Below, one piece after another: positions 3,552 through 12,089 of a stretch of DNA of 64,000 nt; within the stretch, counting starts at the first letter, position 1, and each line of letters starts with the position of its first letter. A program made the position numbers and the translations under genes. The DNA comes from Frigoriglobus tundricola. Its GTDB lineage: Bacteria; Planctomycetota; Planctomycetia; Gemmatales; Gemmataceae. The stretch covers positions 4,464,001-4,528,000 of the forward strand of contig NZ_CP053452.2 of NCBI RefSeq assembly GCF_013128195.2, in the 5' to 3' direction. The notes under the pieces were generated by a model. The model saw only the letters and a list, made by a program, of their open reading frames with translations. It searched no databases and had not been told where the DNA came from.

Positions 3552-4781
3552 TCACTTGCCCAGTGAGGTGAAGTCCACCACCACGCGCTCGCCCGCCCGG
3601 AACGGCACCTTCTGGGTGAGCGTTTCCGGCTGCCCGTTGCGGATCACTTCCGCCTTGATGAGGTACGCGAATTCGCGCCCGGCCGGCAGCGGCGGGGTCG
3701 CGAACGAGCGCACCGGTTCCTGCGACGGGCTCTTGCGGTCGTCCACATACAGCGTTGCGCCGGGCGGCAGTTTCACGGTGATCGTCGCGCGGTCCGCGCC
3801 GGGCAGGGCCGGCGTATCGGCCGCAGGGGCCGACCGGATCGGCGGCTCCGCCTTGACCGGTTCCTGCGCGGTCGGCTTCGCCGGGGTCTGGCCCTTGTCG
3901 CTCTTGTCCAGCCCGGTCGCGGTCGCGGTTCCCGGTCCGCCGGACCGAGCGGTCGTCAGGTCGGTGAACTCGACCGCCACCGCGAACCCGGGCCGCACCG
4001 ATACCTTCTTCGTCACGCTGACGGTCTCACCGTCCCGCTCGTACTCGGCTTTGAACCGGTAGACGAACTCCTGGCCGGTCGGCAGTTCGGGGCTGACGAA
4101 CTTCCGCTCCGCGCCGGTCAGGTTCAGCGCGCGGTTGTCGGCGAAGAGGCGGGCGTCGGCCGGCAGCTTGACCACCACCGTGGCCCGCGCGGTCGGCCCG
4201 TTCGAGACGAGCGCGGTGCCCGTGTGAGCGGCGGGGCGGAGGCCGGTAGAGCCCGGAGCGGGTTCGATTGGCGCGTAGGGGATGGACGGCGCCCCCGGCG
4301 CCGGGCTCATGGGGTATGTGTCGAACGCCGGCGGCGGGGCCGAATACGGCAGCCCGCCCTGGCACGACAACCCGCCGTTGAACACCGGCGTATAGTACAC
4401 CGCCGGCCCGCCGAAGCACGAATACGCGGAGCCCGAGCAGGAGTACCCCGAGCAGGAGTACCCCGAGCCCGTGCAGCCGTAACTGTAGCTCCCGCCGCAG
4501 CACCCGGTGCCGGCCGGGGTGTGCTCGAACCAGCTCCGCATGCGGCTGCCCAGACCGAGACCGAACACGCCCCCACAGCACGACGACCCGCAGCACCCGG
4601 AACACGACGCGGGATAAGCGGACGCGCCCGAACAGCCCCCGGAGCAACTGTACCGCGTCGCGCCCGAACACCCGTTGCACCCGTTGCAACTGTTGCCACT
4701 GAACAGGTCGCGGAAGTAGCCGTTGAATTGCGCCGCGTCCGGCGCGCCCGTCATGGCGGTCATCATCACAAGGCTGTACAT
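3552..4781 (-). CDS. Cys/Gly-rich protein with two TIGR03000 domains
   Basis: A 409-residue protein. Residues about 20-120 form a low-complexity Cys/Gly/Ser/Tyr region with many CSG, CNGC and GCCGS repeats. A Pro-rich linker follows, then two copies of the planctomycete-specific TIGR03000 domain (each of the form A-VVVKLPADARLFADNR...ERKFVSPELPTGQEFVYRF...VSVRPG..VAVEF), separated by a Thr/Pro/Lys linker. The start at 4781 (MYSLVMM) is the first Met before the Cys-rich region; upstream in-frame codons extend through non-conserved sequence. The Cys-rich stretch may be metal-binding or disulfide-crosslinked, but that is inference. Function is unknown. It is divergent from the S41 protease gene. 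Confidence 0.85.
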   Translation of the reverse strand: MYSLVMMTAMTGAPDAAQFNGYFRDLFSGNSCNGCNGCSGATRYSCSGGCSGASAYPASCSGCCGSSCCGGVFGLGLGSRMRSWFEHTPAGTGCCGGSYSYGCTGSGYSCSGYSCSGSAYSCFGGPAVYYTPVFNGGLSCQGGLPYSAPPPAFDTYPMSPAPGAPSIPYAPIEPAPGSTGLRPAAHTGTALVSNGPTARATVVVKLPADARLFADNRALNLTGAERKFVSPELPTGQEFVYRFKAEYERDGETVSVTKKVSVRPGFAVAVEFTDLTTARSGGPGTATATGLDKSDKGQTPAKPTAQEPVKAEPPIRSAPAADTPALPGADRATITVKLPPGATLYVDDRKSPSQEPVRSFATPPLPAGREFAYLIKAEVIRNGQPETLTQKVPFRAGERVVVDFTSLGK

Positions 4782-5036
4782 GGCCGGTGTCTCGCGGGAG
4801 GCGCGTGTCAGTTTGGAGACTCTGGAGAGCCTATAGCGCGAGGATAACCGGCGCCGAATAGGCGGGCAAACCGACTTGACGTAATCTTTACAACGCCCGC
4901 CGGCCCGAGATGTCGGCTCCCGCGGAACGGGAGCAGCGGGTATAATCGGTAAAACCCGGCGGCTCGCGTCCCGCGCACCCGCGCGCGGCGCGGGACGCCC
5001 CGCGGGTCCCGAACGCCAATTGCTCCTGGAGAACCC

Positions 5037-6518
5037 ATGCCCCTTCGGAACCTGGCCTGGCTGCTGATCGTGCCCGCGCTGGTCGCCCTGGGGCTGGCGA
5101 TCAGCTACAGCGCGCCGCCGCCGGACAAGGACTACAACCGCGTCCGGCAGATCGTGGACGTGCTGGCCGAGGTGGACGCGCACTTCTACCGCAAGCTGGA
5201 CGACAAGGAACAGCAGCAGCTCGTCGAAGACATGATCAACGGCGGGCTGCACAAGCTCGACCCGCACTCCGAGTACCTGAACCCGGCGCAGCTCAAACAG
5301 TTCGAGTCCGACAGCGAGGGCAGCTTCGGCGGCGTGGGCATCATCCTGGCCATCGATTCATCCACGAAGTTCCTGAAGGTCGATCACCCGATGCCCGGCA
5401 CGCCGGCGTACGAGGCCGGGGTGCTCGCGGGCGACCTCATCGTCAAGGTGGACGGCAAGTCCACCGAGGGCCTCACCGTGCCGGAGGCGCGCAAGCTGAT
5501 CACCGGCGAGCAGGGCAGCAAGGTGCTCGTCACCATCCGCCGCGCCGGCCGCAACCCCGCGGACGAGGAGGTGGAGCTGACCCGCGGGCGCATCACGCAG
5601 CACCCGGTCACCGGCGTGCGGCGCCGGGCCGACGACCCGAACCGGTGGGAGTGGTTCGTGGACCGGCCCAACGGGATCGCGCTGGTCCGCGTGTCCGGGT
5701 TCAACGAGCAGACCACCAAGGAGCTGAAGGCCGCGCTCGCGGAGATCGAGGGCGAGGGCGGAAAGGCGCTGATCCTCGACCTCCGCGACAACCCCGGCGG
5801 GCTGCTCAACCAGGCCATCGACGTGGCGAACCTGTTCCTCCCCGAGGGCGCGCCGATCGTGAGCACCCGCGGCCGCGACGCCGAGCGGGAGCGGGCGTTC
5901 AAGGCCGAGAAGGACCGCGAGGTGTTCAAGCCCGCCGACCGGCACCCGGTCGTGGTGCTGGTCAACGACGGCAGCGCCAGCGCCAGCGAGATCGTCGCCT
6001 CGGCGCTCCAGGACAACAAGCGGGCGGTGGTGATGGGCGAGCGGTCCTACGGCAAGGGGAGCGTGCAGAAGCTCCTGCGGCTCCAGGTCGCCGGCGACAA
6101 GGCCGCGGTGAAGCTGACCACCGAAACGTACTGGCGGCCGAACGGGGAGAACATGGACAAGCGGCTCGCCCCGAAGGACAAGCCGGACGAGTGGGGGGTG
6201 AAGCCCAACATCGTGGTCCCGATGACGTACGAGGAGCGGGAGCGCGCGGCCTGGGACTACTACCGCTCGACGTGGGTCGCGGGCAAGCCGTCGGCGCTCG
6301 GCCCCAACCCGCCGGCCGCGCCCGCACCGCCCGCCCCGGGCTCGCTGGCCCTCGCCCTCCGCACGCAGATTTCGCCCACCGCCCCCCCGATGCCCGACAC
6401 CAAGGTCGTCGAGGACAAGCAACTAAAGGCGGCGGTCGAAGAGTTGAAGAAGAAGCTCGGCGGGGTCGGCACGGCACCGCGCCAGCCGGCACGCGCCCCC
6501 GAGCTGATCGTCGGCTGA
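5037..6518 (+). CDS. ctpA: S41-family C-terminal processing protease (CtpA/Prc type)
   Basis: A 493-residue periplasmic serine protease. It has an N-terminal membrane anchor/signal (residues 7-25), a helical N-domain with LDPHSEYLNP, a PDZ domain (about 95-170) containing GIILAID and AGVLAGDLIVKVDG, and the S41 catalytic domain. The Ser/Lys dyad lies in NDGSASASEIV (likely Ser315) and SYGKGSVQ (Lys340). LDLRDNPGGLL is the conserved strand before it. The C-terminal 100 residues are Pro/Ala-rich with a predicted helix. Such proteases trim or degrade envelope proteins from the C-terminus. The gene has its own upstream region of about 250 bases, shared with the divergent TIGR03000 gene. Confidence 0.93.
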   Translation: MPLRNLAWLLIVPALVALGLAISYSAPPPDKDYNRVRQIVDVLAEVDAHFYRKLDDKEQQQLVEDMINGGLHKLDPHSEYLNPAQLKQFESDSEGSFGGVGIILAIDSSTKFLKVDHPMPGTPAYEAGVLAGDLIVKVDGKSTEGLTVPEARKLITGEQGSKVLVTIRRAGRNPADEEVELTRGRITQHPVTGVRRRADDPNRWEWFVDRPNGIALVRVSGFNEQTTKELKAALAEIEGEGGKALILDLRDNPGGLLNQAIDVANLFLPEGAPIVSTRGRDAERERAFKAEKDREVFKPADRHPVVVLVNDGSASASEIVASALQDNKRAVVMGERSYGKGSVQKLLRLQVAGDKAAVKLTTETYWRPNGENMDKRLAPKDKPDEWGVKPNIVVPMTYEERERAAWDYYRSTWVAGKPSALGPNPPAAPAPPAPGSLALALRTQISPTAPPMPDTKVVEDKQLKAAVEELKKKLGGVGTAPRQPARAPELIVG

Positions 6519-8333: not shown

Positions 8334-8370
8334 CGGCACCGCCCCGTGACTTCGTCACGGGGCGGTGCCG
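8334..8370 (-). terminator. 17-bp perfect hairpin, probable intrinsic terminator
   Basis: Perfect stem 8334-8350 / 8354-8370 with a TTC loop. On the minus strand it lies about 120 bases after the stop of the candidate selenoprotein gene and is followed by CTTCATATTTG, a weak T-rich tract. It probably ends that transcript upstream of the crotonase gene. Confidence 0.65.
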
Positions 8371-8492: not shown

Positions 8493-9449
8493 TTACTTGG
8501 AAGCGCCCGGCGGGAGCGGCTTGAGGCGGTTGCCGTCCCGGTCCACCCAGGTGAACGGTTTCACCACGTCCACCGGTTTGGTCGAGATCTTCTCACCGAG
8601 AACGTTCTCGAACACGGTCCCGTAAACGCGGTCGATGGGGGCCATCGCGTGCGCGGCCAGGATCTGGTGAACGAGGCTCTGGTTGGTGACCACCACCCGC
8701 CGCCCCTTGCAGTCGGCGGCGATGCGGTTGCCCGGCGCGGCGCCCGCCGCCTTCTGCATCGCCTCGAACTTGCCGGCGGTGAGGGACACGTCCGGGCCGT
8801 CGAGCGGCGGGGGCGGCAGCTTCGGCGCGAGCGGCCGGCCGGTCGGGTCGCGGTAGGTGAGCGCGTCCTTCGGGTCCATCGCCTCCGGCGGGTCGTAGGT
8901 CACCGCCTCGACCACGATGCCGAACTCCTGGCGCAACTTCTCGGCGTGGGCCTTGCGGAACAGCTCCTTGAACTTGGCCCCGTCGTTCTTGCTCTCCTTC
9001 ATGCACGTCTTGGTCGTCTCGACGACCCACTTCGCCTCCCGGAGGAACGTTGGCGCGTCCACCGGACCGGCGACGCAGTGCAGCACGCGGCCGTCCGGCG
9101 CGCAGAAGTACGCCGCGACGTTCCCGCCCTGCTTGGCACCGTTGACGATCTTGAACGTGGCGACCTTCTGAAATGACGAGACGAAGTACTCGTTGCAGAA
9201 CTTGCCGACTTCCGCGTTGTTCAGGGCGCCCGCACGGAGCGCTTCGGCGTTGTTTCAGGTGAGGCCGGGGTCTTCAAAGTGCCCGGACACGTGGAGCACG
9301 AGTACGAGCTTCTGCTCCTTCTTCGCGATCGCGGCGGCCCCTTTCGGGCTGTCCACGAAGTCGAGCTTCGTGCCGAACCCGCACGTTTCGGCCGCCCCGA
9401 GCGGCGGCGCCAGCAGGCCGACCGCTGCGGCGAAAAGAACATATCGCAT
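8493..9449 (-). CDS. Candidate selenoprotein: secreted thioredoxin-like protein with in-frame UGA (Sec65)
   Basis: From the ATG at 9449 (GGAGG Shine-Dalgarno 10 bases upstream) the frame runs through a signal peptide (MRYVLFAAAVGLLAPPLGAA) and a thioredoxin-like beta strand (KLVLVLHVSGHFEDPGLT) to a single TGA at 9257-9255. It then continues without interruption for 253 codons (NNAEALRAGALNNAEVGKF...). Both sides read as one protein, giving 318 residues with residue 65 encoded by UGA. The UGA sits about where a redox Cys would follow the first thioredoxin strand, and a hairpin with bacterial SECIS geometry begins 12 bases after it. Reading UGA as selenocysteine is therefore favoured, but a nonsense mutation or sequencing error is possible. 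The rest of the protein (FCAPDGRVLHCVAGPVDA) looks like a planctomycete secreted thioredoxin-fold family. No selA, selB or selD gene lies in the window. Confidence 0.65.
9226..9257 (-). promoter_or_regulatory. UGA codon with SECIS-like hairpin
   Basis: On the minus strand the UGA (9257-9255) is followed by 12 bases, then GCGCTC (9242-9237), a five-base loop CGTGC (9236-9232) and GGGCGC (9231-9226). The stem is 6 bp, five Watson-Crick pairs and one G-U. Bacterial SECIS models ask for a short stem with a G among the first two apical-loop bases, 16-37 bases after the UGA. Here the G is the second loop base, with 19 bases between it and the UGA. Confidence 0.55.
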
Positions 9450-10551: not shown

Positions 10552-12089
10552 GTGAACAGCGGTTTCCTCGCACTCGCCCTGCTCGGCCCGGCCGCCCCCA
10601 CCGAGGGGCTGCAAAAGGGCGACGAGTTGAAGTTCGTCGGAACGGTGGAAGAGGCCGTGGACCGGCCCGGCAACCGGTTCCGCCGGTCCCAGGCGCTCGT
10701 CGTCCGCGTGCTCGTGCTGGAGCGGACGGACGCGTGGACCGACGTGGCCGTCCTCACGCTCCTCACCCGCACCGACGACGCGGTGACCGGGGCCGTGGCC
10801 GCCGTCACCGGCGGCGCGCCCGAAAAGGCGCACCCGCCCGGCGTCCGGCTCGATCTGGTGCGCGCCCACGCCGACGGCACGGCTCATGTGCTCCTCCCGG
10901 TCGGGGCGCCGCCCCTCGCGCTCGACGCCAAAACGCCCGCGCGCACGCTCCCCGTCCCCCGCTCGACTCCTTCGCCCCGTTCGAGTTCGGCATGTTCCCG
11001 CCCCGGCCGCCGAAGACCGCCGCGGACAAGCCGTGGGCGGTCGCGTCCGCCGACACGGGCCGGCCGGCCGAAACGTGGCAGGCGCAGGGCACCGACCTGG
11101 TGACCGCCGAGCGGTGCGCGCTGATCGTGATGAACCAGGCCCACGCGAACTGGGCGGCCCCCGTGGGCGGCAAGCTCGCCTGGCACCGCGCCGACGCCGC
11201 CTGGGTGGCCCGCGACGGGATCGCGCACAAGGTCCACCGCGTCATCAAACACCGCGACGGGCTGGCGCGCGAACTCGCCGCGTGGGTCGAGGTGAAGTAC
11301 GAGCTGACGAGCCAGACCTGCGTCAACGGCCGCCTGTTCGACCGCTACCGGCGCGACGTGGAGTTCGCGTTCGCGGCGGCCGCCGACGTGGCCCCGCTCC
11401 TCCCGGACGCCCGGCTGCACGCGGCCCGCTTCGAAAAAGAGCTGAAGAAACTCGACCTCTACCTCGCCGACGCGGACAACTCCAGCCCGTACCGCGAGGC
11501 GGTGCTGGCCGTGCGCCGCCAGATCGATGCCGCGCGGCGGGGCGAAGCCGTGTCCCCATTCGCGCCGGCCGGCTGGCTCTCCTCCGCCACCGTCCCGAAG
11601 CGCGCCGCGTGGCCGGAACCGGGGCGCCTGGCGCCCGACTTCACGGCCGGCCCGTTCCGGCTCGCCGACGCCCGCGGGAGGCCGGTGGTACTGGTGTTCT
11701 TTAAACCCGGCAGCGAGACCACCGACCTCACGCTCGCCGTCGCCGACGCCCTGCACCAGAAGTACGGCACCCGGTCGGATGTTGTGCCGCTGGCGGTCTG
11801 GGGCGACGCGGCGGCGGGGGTGAAGGACCGGGACCGGCGCAAGCTGACCGTCCCGATTTACGACGGCACGCAGGCGGAGACGGCGTTCGGCGTGGATTCC
11901 GTCCCCCGGTTCGTGGTACTCGATGGCGGCGGCGTGGTGCAGTGGACGTTCTCTGGGGTCGGCGCCGAAACCGGCCATTCCGCCCGGGAGCAACTGGAAC
12001 GCCTCCTCCCCGCAGTCGCCCCCGGCGCCCCGGACGGAACAATCCACACACCCGCACCCGGAACCGCGGCCCCCGCCCGGCGGCCGTGA
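10552..12089 (+). CDS. Redoxin-domain protein interrupted by a one-base frameshift
   Basis: The N-terminal part starts at the GTG at 10552 (GAGG at 10543-10546): a signal-like segment and EGLQKGDELKFVGTVEEAVDRPGNRF. It reads sensibly to about 10965 and then degenerates. The frame one base earlier continues with PLDSFAPFEFGMFPPRPPK and runs to 12089. The break lies in a run of C (about 10961-10967), consistent with one missing base. Restored, the product is about 510 residues and ends in a peroxiredoxin/TlpA-like domain (LAPDFTAGPFRLADARGRP, VVLVFFKPGSETTDL...VPRFVVLDGGGVVQWTFSG). The usual CxxC is absent (PGSETTD in its place), so redox activity is doubtful. It could be a decayed gene or a sequencing error. 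Confidence 0.65.

What the first reader, a model, noticed from the sequence alone, without database searches (positions are those of the whole stretch)
8493..9449. Candidate selenoprotein: in-frame UGA in a secreted thioredoxin-like protein with a SECIS-like hairpin
Seen directly: one ATG-initiated, SD-preceded minus-strand frame has a single TGA (9257-9255) between FEDPGLT and NNAEALRAG, with coherent protein-like sequence on both sides and no shift. The position follows the first thioredoxin strand, where this fold keeps its redox Cys. Six base pairs around a five-base loop with G as the second loop base begin 12 bases after the UGA; there are 19 bases between the UGA and that G. That agrees with published bacterial SECIS geometry (family knowledge). 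Inference: UGA is read as selenocysteine, making this a previously undescribed secreted planctomycete selenoprotein family.
Basis: partly seen in the sequence, partly recalled or inferred. Interest (0 to 1): 0.88.

Follow-up and report, generated by a model that had tools for sequence, protein, structure and literature searches.

The report
New secreted planctomycete selenoprotein family
A gene that looks broken by a stop codon is really a selenium-containing secreted redox protein, and the same stop codon, read as the rare amino acid selenocysteine, is kept in over a hundred relatives across the Planctomycetota, forming a large family missing from the protein-family databases and catalogues I could check.

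Summary
The frame 9449-8493 (-) has one TGA (9257-9255). That TGA is conserved in 29/29 homologues in related genomes and 59/59 GTDB loci. The hairpin 12 nt after it (9242-9226) is a true RNA element: its two third-codon positions covary through all four Watson-Crick pairs (62/63 paired; 0/20,000 codon-preserving shuffles), and synonymous variation collapses only over codons 70-74. The genome has tRNA-Sec(UCA), selA, selB and selD. Of 65 TGA-bearing genomes, 64 have selA or selB; the one without either is 65% complete. The protein is a secreted thioredoxin fold of the DsbD-gamma/Thioredoxin_7 type, with Sec at the helix N-cap in T-U-N-N-A: UxxA instead of CxxC. It is one branch of a Planctomycetota-wide superfamily (TUNNA, FCUTNA, LUSAG) whose subgroups carry different hairpins after the UGA. 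One clade has Cys instead (SCANS); two copies have Ser or Ala. Nothing in Pfam, NCBIfam (June 2026) or a 2026 catalogue of 119 prokaryotic selenoprotein families matches. Selenocysteine decoding is very likely (about 0.95). The exact activity, probably an extracytoplasmic selenol peroxidase or reductase, is inferred only.

The parts
8493..9449 (-). Selenoprotein gene, 318 aa, Sec at residue 65 (TGA), signal peptide at the N terminus, thioredoxin-fold domain about residues 30-153, helical C-terminal part
   Evidence: homologues with the same in-frame TGA; fold
9255..9257 (-). TGA (UGA) codon read as selenocysteine, U65 in the motif FEDPGLT-U-NNAEALR
   Evidence: TGA in 29/29 and 59/59 homologues; 117 of 134 in the wider superfamily, with 15 Cys, 1 Ser, 1 Ala
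9226..9242 (-). bSECIS hairpin GCGCUC-CGUGC-GGGCGC, 6 bp and a 5-nt loop with G-U at loop positions 2-3; loop 9236-9232
   Evidence: Covariation and synonymous constraint; geometry matches the published model (PMC13188914)
9455..9460 (-). Shine-Dalgarno GGAGGT, 5 nt before the ATG
   Evidence: the same GGAGGT-ATG arrangement in most group I homologues
9387..9449 (-). Predicted signal peptide MRYVLFAAAVGLLAPPLGAAE (about residues 1-21)
   Evidence: Read from the sequence; hydrophobic N termini in the homologues; no signal-peptide program was run
9102..9104 (-). Codon for Cys116 (YFCAPDG), the most conserved Cys of the Sec forms
   Evidence: C in 104 of 117 Sec forms, Leu in 15 of 15 Cys forms
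8334..8370 (-). Strong 17-bp terminator-like hairpin downstream of the gene, before the enoyl-CoA hydratase gene
   Evidence: one found against 1.0 expected in shuffles, but with 14 G-C pairs

Best explanation
The gene encodes a secreted (extracytoplasmic) selenoprotein. SHOWN by comparison: UGA codon 65 is not a stop. It is followed by a bacterial SECIS hairpin under selection as RNA, in a genome with the full Sec-decoding set (tRNA-Sec UCA, SelA, SelB, SelD). INFERRED from established Sec biology: SelB binds the hairpin and delivers Sec-tRNA to the UGA. The product is predicted to fold as a thioredoxin domain of the DsbD-gamma/Thioredoxin_7 type. Its Sec sits at the N-cap of the first active-site helix, where the first Cys of CxxC normally sits, and the resolving position +3 is Ala (T-U-N-N-A). 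INFERRED: with no resolving Cys in the motif, the enzyme works as a one-selenol catalyst, a peroxidase or selenylsulfide reductase outside the cytoplasm. Its oxidised selenium is resolved by another thiol, either Cys24 or Cys116 of the same protein or an external thiol. Sec decoding about 0.95; thioredoxin fold about 0.95; one-selenol peroxidase/reductase activity about 0.45.
For: TGA in 29/29 relatives and 59/59 GTDB loci, with protein-level conservation continuing on both sides (invariant T64-U65-N66-N67-A68, R72, A75, L76). Hairpin pair 15-27 joins the third bases of codons 70 and 74 and occurs as G-C, A-U, C-G, U-A and G-U; 62/63 paired, 0 of 20,000 shuffles that keep amino acids as high. 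Tool count: 96.0% of cells paired, 13 both-side changes against 4.2 shuffled, all slid versions far lower. Synonymous entropy falls to 0-0.25 at codons 70-74 against a mean of 0.71 elsewhere; Arg72 is CGT in 56/60 against 67 of 783 Arg codons (9%) elsewhere. Other subgroups carry other hairpins with the same apical G[G/U]. tRNA-Sec 74.7 bits, anticodon TCA; selA 550 bits; selD 386 bits; selB 345 bits jointly. In a class sample of 398 genomes, 59 of 65 TGA-form genomes have selA against 149 of 333 others (Fisher p = 9e-13); five of the six exceptions have selB and the sixth is 65% complete. G219, where only the Cys form was found, has neither. Fold.
Against: No peptide or selenium measurement. 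Folding energy alone does not distinguish the hairpin. Co-occurrence with selA/selB is partly shared ancestry. In about half of the Gemmatales sequences one pair of the stem (16-26) is a C-A mismatch. By strand position Cys116 lies at the far end of its strand from where a cis-Pro would be, so a direct U65-C116 bond would need a rearrangement or a second molecule.
Confidence: 0.9

Rival explanations
1. The gene is a pseudogene or carries a sequencing error: the TGA is an ordinary premature stop.
For: TGA is the commonest stop in this genome (27 of 41 long ORFs in the window).
Against: The same TGA stands at the same column in every one of dozens of independent assemblies, with purifying selection on both sides and no other stops.
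Confidence: 0.005
2. The UGA is read through or recoded as another amino acid (near-cognate read-through, or a local UGA-Trp/Cys reading), and the hairpin is a general read-through stimulator.
For: A stimulatory hairpin downstream of a recoded stop is not unique to Sec.
Against: Only UGA is used, never UAA or UAG. All subgroups keep an apical G followed by G or U at bSECIS spacing. Cys replaces UGA in one clade. 64 of 65 genomes with the TGA form carry selA or selB. The codon lies at the catalytic position of a thioredoxin fold.
Confidence: 0.04
3. It is a selenoprotein, but its job is thiol-disulfide exchange or isomerisation (a DsbD-gamma, DsbC or AGR2-like one-thiol isomerase) rather than peroxide or selenylsulfide reduction.
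For: The best structural matches are disulfide-exchange proteins: DsbD-gamma, DsbH, AGR2/AGR3, ERp18. AGR proteins also lack the second Cys (family knowledge).
Against: Classical exchange needs CxxC. Sec gives most advantage in peroxidase-type or one-selenol chemistry (family knowledge). No cis-Pro is conserved before the last strand.
Confidence: 0.3
4. The Sec binds a metal or carries selenium/sulfur (a chaperone or sulfurtransferase role) instead of catalysing a redox reaction.
For: One group has the vicinal pair C-U (FCUTNA). No conserved redox partner lies next to the gene.
Against: Thioredoxin fold with the residue at the helix N-cap; no conserved His or Cys cluster.
Confidence: 0.15

Closest known systems
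Thioredoxin_7 (PF13899) / DsbD C-terminal (gamma) domain and DsbH (PF03190) class of thioredoxin folds
   Same: Fold and position of the active residue: Foldseek best hits 3f9u, 3ira, 7tkv, 3ph9, 1uc7, 1vrs, 2ju5. Distant group IV, V and Cys members give sub-threshold hits to PF13899 or PF03190 (E 0.001-0.02).
   Different: The window protein has no hit to any Pfam model at E up to 1. The motif is U-x-x-A, not C-x-x-C, with a long C-terminal helical part.
VPGUxxT family thioredoxin-like selenoprotein (NF041383, OS_HP5)
   Same: A thioredoxin-like family with Sec and no Cys at +3 (UxxT). The N-terminal strand-helix region matches group IV and V members weakly (E 2e-4 to 0.01).
   Different: No match to the window protein. 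No planctomycete in the relatives sample reaches its cut-off (0 of 59). The motif is different (VPGU against TUNNA).
Thiol:disulfide interchange selenoprotein (PF13098, UxxC) and Trx7/PDZ selenoprotein (NF041199, CxxU)
   Same: Sec in a thioredoxin-fold domain of the same general class (listed in PMC13188914).
   Different: Both keep a Cys three residues away; this family has Ala (108 of 117) or Gly (9 of 117) there.
Sec peroxiredoxin / glutathione peroxidase-like selenoproteins
   Same: Thioredoxin fold with one catalytic selenol at a helix N-cap and no resolving Cys in the motif (family knowledge).
   Different: Neither the TxxU (Prx) nor the UxxT (GPX) motif; no sequence match. Similarity of chemistry is only a proposal.
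Glycine reductase selenoprotein A
   Same: A family reported to lack Cys homologues (PMC12013277); the window's branch also has none (59 of 59 UGA).
   Different: Unrelated protein; the wider superfamily here does have a Cys clade.

Membership tests
Bacterial selenoprotein | In-frame UGA with conserved coding sequence on both sides in homologues | tested here: met
   29/29 and 59/59 homologues
Bacterial selenoprotein | bSECIS: 3-9 nt loop, 4-16 bp stem, G in the first two loop positions, 16-37 nt from UGA, MFE at most -7.5 | tested here: met
   5-nt loop, 6 bp, G at loop position 2, 18 nt spacing, -8.2 kcal/mol for the 17-mer; some relatives fall short on energy because of the 16-26 mismatch
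Bacterial selenoprotein | The hairpin is under selection as RNA | tested here: met
Bacterial selenoprotein | selA, selB, selC (tRNA-Sec) and selD in the genome | tested here: met
Bacterial selenoprotein | Cys in place of Sec in some homologues | tested here: met
   Only in a distant clade, SCANSRFFR, 15 loci with Cys at the column; none in the window's own branch
Bacterial selenoprotein | Selenium in the purified protein or Sec by mass spectrometry | not testable with these tools
   Needs experiment
Thioredoxin_7 / DsbD-gamma type thioredoxin fold | Fold | tested here: met
   AlphaFold2 core pLDDT above 90 with strand 48-54, helix 66-76 and so on; Foldseek E 5e-4, probability 1.00 to 3f9u, 3ira and 7tkv
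Thioredoxin_7 / DsbD-gamma type thioredoxin fold | Score above the Pfam gathering threshold | tested here: not met
   Window protein: no hit; distant members 15.7-19.4 bits against a cut-off of 27
Thioredoxin_7 / DsbD-gamma type thioredoxin fold | CxxC active site | tested here: not met
   UxxA or UxxG in all Sec forms, CxxS in the Cys clade
VPGUxxT selenoprotein family NF041383 | Score above the curated cut-off of 275 bits | tested here: not met
   No hit for the window protein; at most 21 bits for distant members
Peroxiredoxin / glutathione peroxidase | Family motif and profile match | tested here: not met
   No Pfam or NCBIfam match

The most novel reading that the evidence does not exclude
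A phylum-wide superfamily of extracytoplasmic thioredoxin-fold selenoproteins, anciently based on Sec, with Sec ancestral and one derived Cys clade (Sec to Cys, against the usual direction), at least three separately evolved SECIS hairpins, and a one-selenol active site (UxxA/UxxG) that represents a catalytic type not described before and helps keep the Sec-decoding trait in Planctomycetota.
Probability: 0.35. Interest if true: 0.78.

Novelty: new variant of a known kind. Interest (0 to 1): 0.62.

Why it matters
Standard gene finders cut these genes at the UGA. Automated selenoprotein pipelines that require Cys homologues would drop the window's branch, a limit the deep-Sep authors state themselves (PMC12013277). 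So a selenoprotein group present in 65 of 398 sampled class genomes, and in other classes of the phylum, has stayed out of Pfam, NCBIfam and the 2026 catalogue. It adds a selenoprotein superfamily with an unlisted active-site motif, gives a candidate reason why many Planctomycetota keep the Sec-decoding machinery, and offers a natural test of what Sec does better than Cys: Sec, Cys, Ser and Ala versions of one fold exist in related bacteria.

Tried and rejected
Folding energy as evidence for the hairpin: not significant (z = -0.67), and longer windows fold otherwise. The lower stem below the six pairs: pair 12-30 is not above a codon-preserving null (1563/20000). Rfam: nothing relevant. Solved structures by sequence: none. 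Conserved neighbourhood: only the enoyl-CoA hydratase downstream in 5 loci, and a serpin-like gene upstream of 9 loci, so no functional clue. NF041383 as the home family: rejected on score. A changed code (UGA = Trp) or a pseudogene: rejected. U65-C116 as the selenylsulfide pair: the coupling is suggestive (104 of 117 against 0 of 15), but the contrast is one clade, and the strand geometry argues against direct contact. The notes record the Cys clade as about 19 genomes; the residue was read in 15 loci, the rest are hits without stops that I did not read.

Full report
OBSERVATION. The minus-strand frame 9449-8493 starts with ATG behind GGAGGT, runs 318 codons to TAA and contains one TGA at 9257-9255. 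TGA is an ordinary stop here (27 of 41 long ORFs in the window), so the genetic code is standard.

THE UGA IS KEPT. A six-frame search of 59 related genomes found homologues in 24. Every alignment that covers the column has TGA there, 29 of 29, and T64-U65-N66-N67-A68 are invariant. A scan of 84,980 species genomes (GTDB r220) gave 59 loci, all Planctomycetota MAGs, 59 of 59 TGA. That scan used a pattern with Cys codons at the site, so close Cys homologues would have been seen; none were. The two sets overlap in part, as they draw on some of the same assemblies.

THE HAIRPIN IS A SELECTED RNA. Among 63 distinct sequences, pairs 13-29, 14-28, 15-27, 17-25 and 18-24 hold in 62 or 63. Pair 15-27 joins the third bases of codons 70 (Ala) and 74, both largely free to vary without changing the protein, and occurs as G-C, A-U, C-G, U-A and G-U. 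Shuffling third bases among sequences with the same first two bases never reached the observed count in 20,000 trials. An independent count on 21 sequences gave 96% paired cells and 13 both-side changes against 4.2 in shuffles, with all slid registers far lower. Synonymous entropy falls to 0-0.25 at codons 70-74 against a mean of 0.71 elsewhere; none of 218 other codons was below 0.15. Arg72 is CGT in 56 of 60 although CGT is 9% of Arg codons elsewhere in the gene. Energy alone would not have shown this. [quoted passage not shown] PMC13188914).

SEC MACHINERY. The genome holds tRNA-Sec with anticodon TCA, selA (550 bits), selD (386 bits) and selB (345 bits jointly). PMC4807772 already reported a full Sec set in Gemmata obscuriglobus. 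In a class sample of 398 genomes, 59 of 65 TGA-form genomes have selA against 149 of 333 others (Fisher p = 9e-13). Five of the six exceptions have selB; the last is 65% complete. G219, where only the Cys form was found, has neither selA nor selB. Shared ancestry explains part of this association.

THE SUPERFAMILY. The same genome has a second, membrane-anchored copy (C1:1010887-1011609, TGA). Profile searches over class and phylum found TUNNA forms in other Planctomycetia families, FCUTNA/FTUTNA forms, and LUSAG/LTUSAA forms in other parts of the phylum, nearly all with one in-frame TGA. The subgroups have different hairpins after the UGA: CGUGU loop in the window's branch, AGGU loop with Arg72 switched to AGA/AGG in the branch of other Planctomycetia families, CGUGUU loop in the FCUTNA branch. 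A single clade has Cys instead, S-C-A-N-S with TGC/TGT; two isolated copies have Ser or Ala. In the tree the Cys rows form one fully supported clade (100/100) among Sec rows. Taken with the midpoint root this means Sec was ancestral and lost three times; the root is not established, so Cys-first is not excluded.

PROTEIN AND MECHANISM. AlphaFold2 gives a thioredoxin core (block pLDDT above 90) with strand 48-54, Sec65, helix 66-76. Foldseek's best solved matches are DsbD-gamma, DsbH, AGR2/3 and related domains. Pfam gives only sub-threshold Thioredoxin_7/DsbH hits, for distant members. The Sec takes the place of the first Cys of CxxC; position +3 is Ala in 108 of 117 and Gly in 9. A signal peptide (window type) or N-terminal anchor (second type) puts it outside the cytoplasm; this is read from sequence only. 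Without a resolving Cys in the motif the simplest chemistry is a one-selenol peroxidase or reductase whose oxidised form is resolved by another thiol. Cys116 is present in 104 of 117 Sec forms and replaced by Leu in 15 of 15 Cys forms, but it lies at the far end of its strand, so Cys24 or an external thiol are equal candidates. No gene neighbourhood points to a substrate.

NOVELTY. No hit for the window protein in Pfam-A or NCBIfam release 20, weak ones for distant members, and no UxxA/TUNNA entry among the 119 families of the 2026 catalogue (PMC13188914). Paper searches for planctomycete selenoproteins found only PMC4807772, whose supplementary candidate table could not be read. deep-Sep's authors state that selenoproteins without Cys homologues may be filtered out (PMC12013277), which fits this family's absence. 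The decoding mechanism is standard; the protein superfamily and its motif appear new.

Noticed in passing
G000:C1:1010887-1011609 (L136): Second selenoprotein copy in the same genome, membrane-anchored type with the same TUNNA site and hairpin.
   Followed up: yes
L133, L134, L150-L156, L166-L178 and others: Distant branch with a vicinal Cys-Sec motif, F-C-U-T-N-A-R, and its own hairpin GAGAAC-CGUGUU-GUUCUC; also unnamed in NCBIfam.
   Followed up: partly
L201-L203, L206, L207, L209, L210, L213, L214: Branch with GLUSAGHSLRAVTL or LTUSAAHAMR motifs in other parts of Planctomycetota, one in-frame TGA each, not in NCBIfam; L211 (DCUNAGQ) is more divergent.
   Followed up: partly
L137 (G008:C1 about 4123400) and L135 (G008:C1 about 4082600): In one relative the second-type gene is split: the TGA-bearing 5' part and the 3' part lie about 41 kb apart, as after a transposition or inversion.
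   Followed up: no
L132 (G033:C201) and L138 (G316:C279): Copies in which the Sec codon has become Ser or Ala while Cys116 and the fold are kept; possible non-redox or dead versions next to intact Sec copies in the same genomes.
   Followed up: partly
window 10734-12089 (+): ORF whose C-terminal part looks like a TlpA/AhpC-type thioredoxin domain (LAPDFTAGPFRLADARGRPVVLVFFKPGSETTDLTL) lacking the redox cysteines; no Pfam hit.
   Followed up: no
window 8334-8370 (-): Perfect 17-bp G+C-rich hairpin with a weak T tail between the selenoprotein gene and the enoyl-CoA hydratase gene; a likely terminator.
   Followed up: no
window 3552-5267 (-): Cys/Gly/Ser-rich repeats (SGCSG, YSCSG) followed by two copies of a domain resembling planctomycete TIGR03000 (recalled, not tested).
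   Followed up: no
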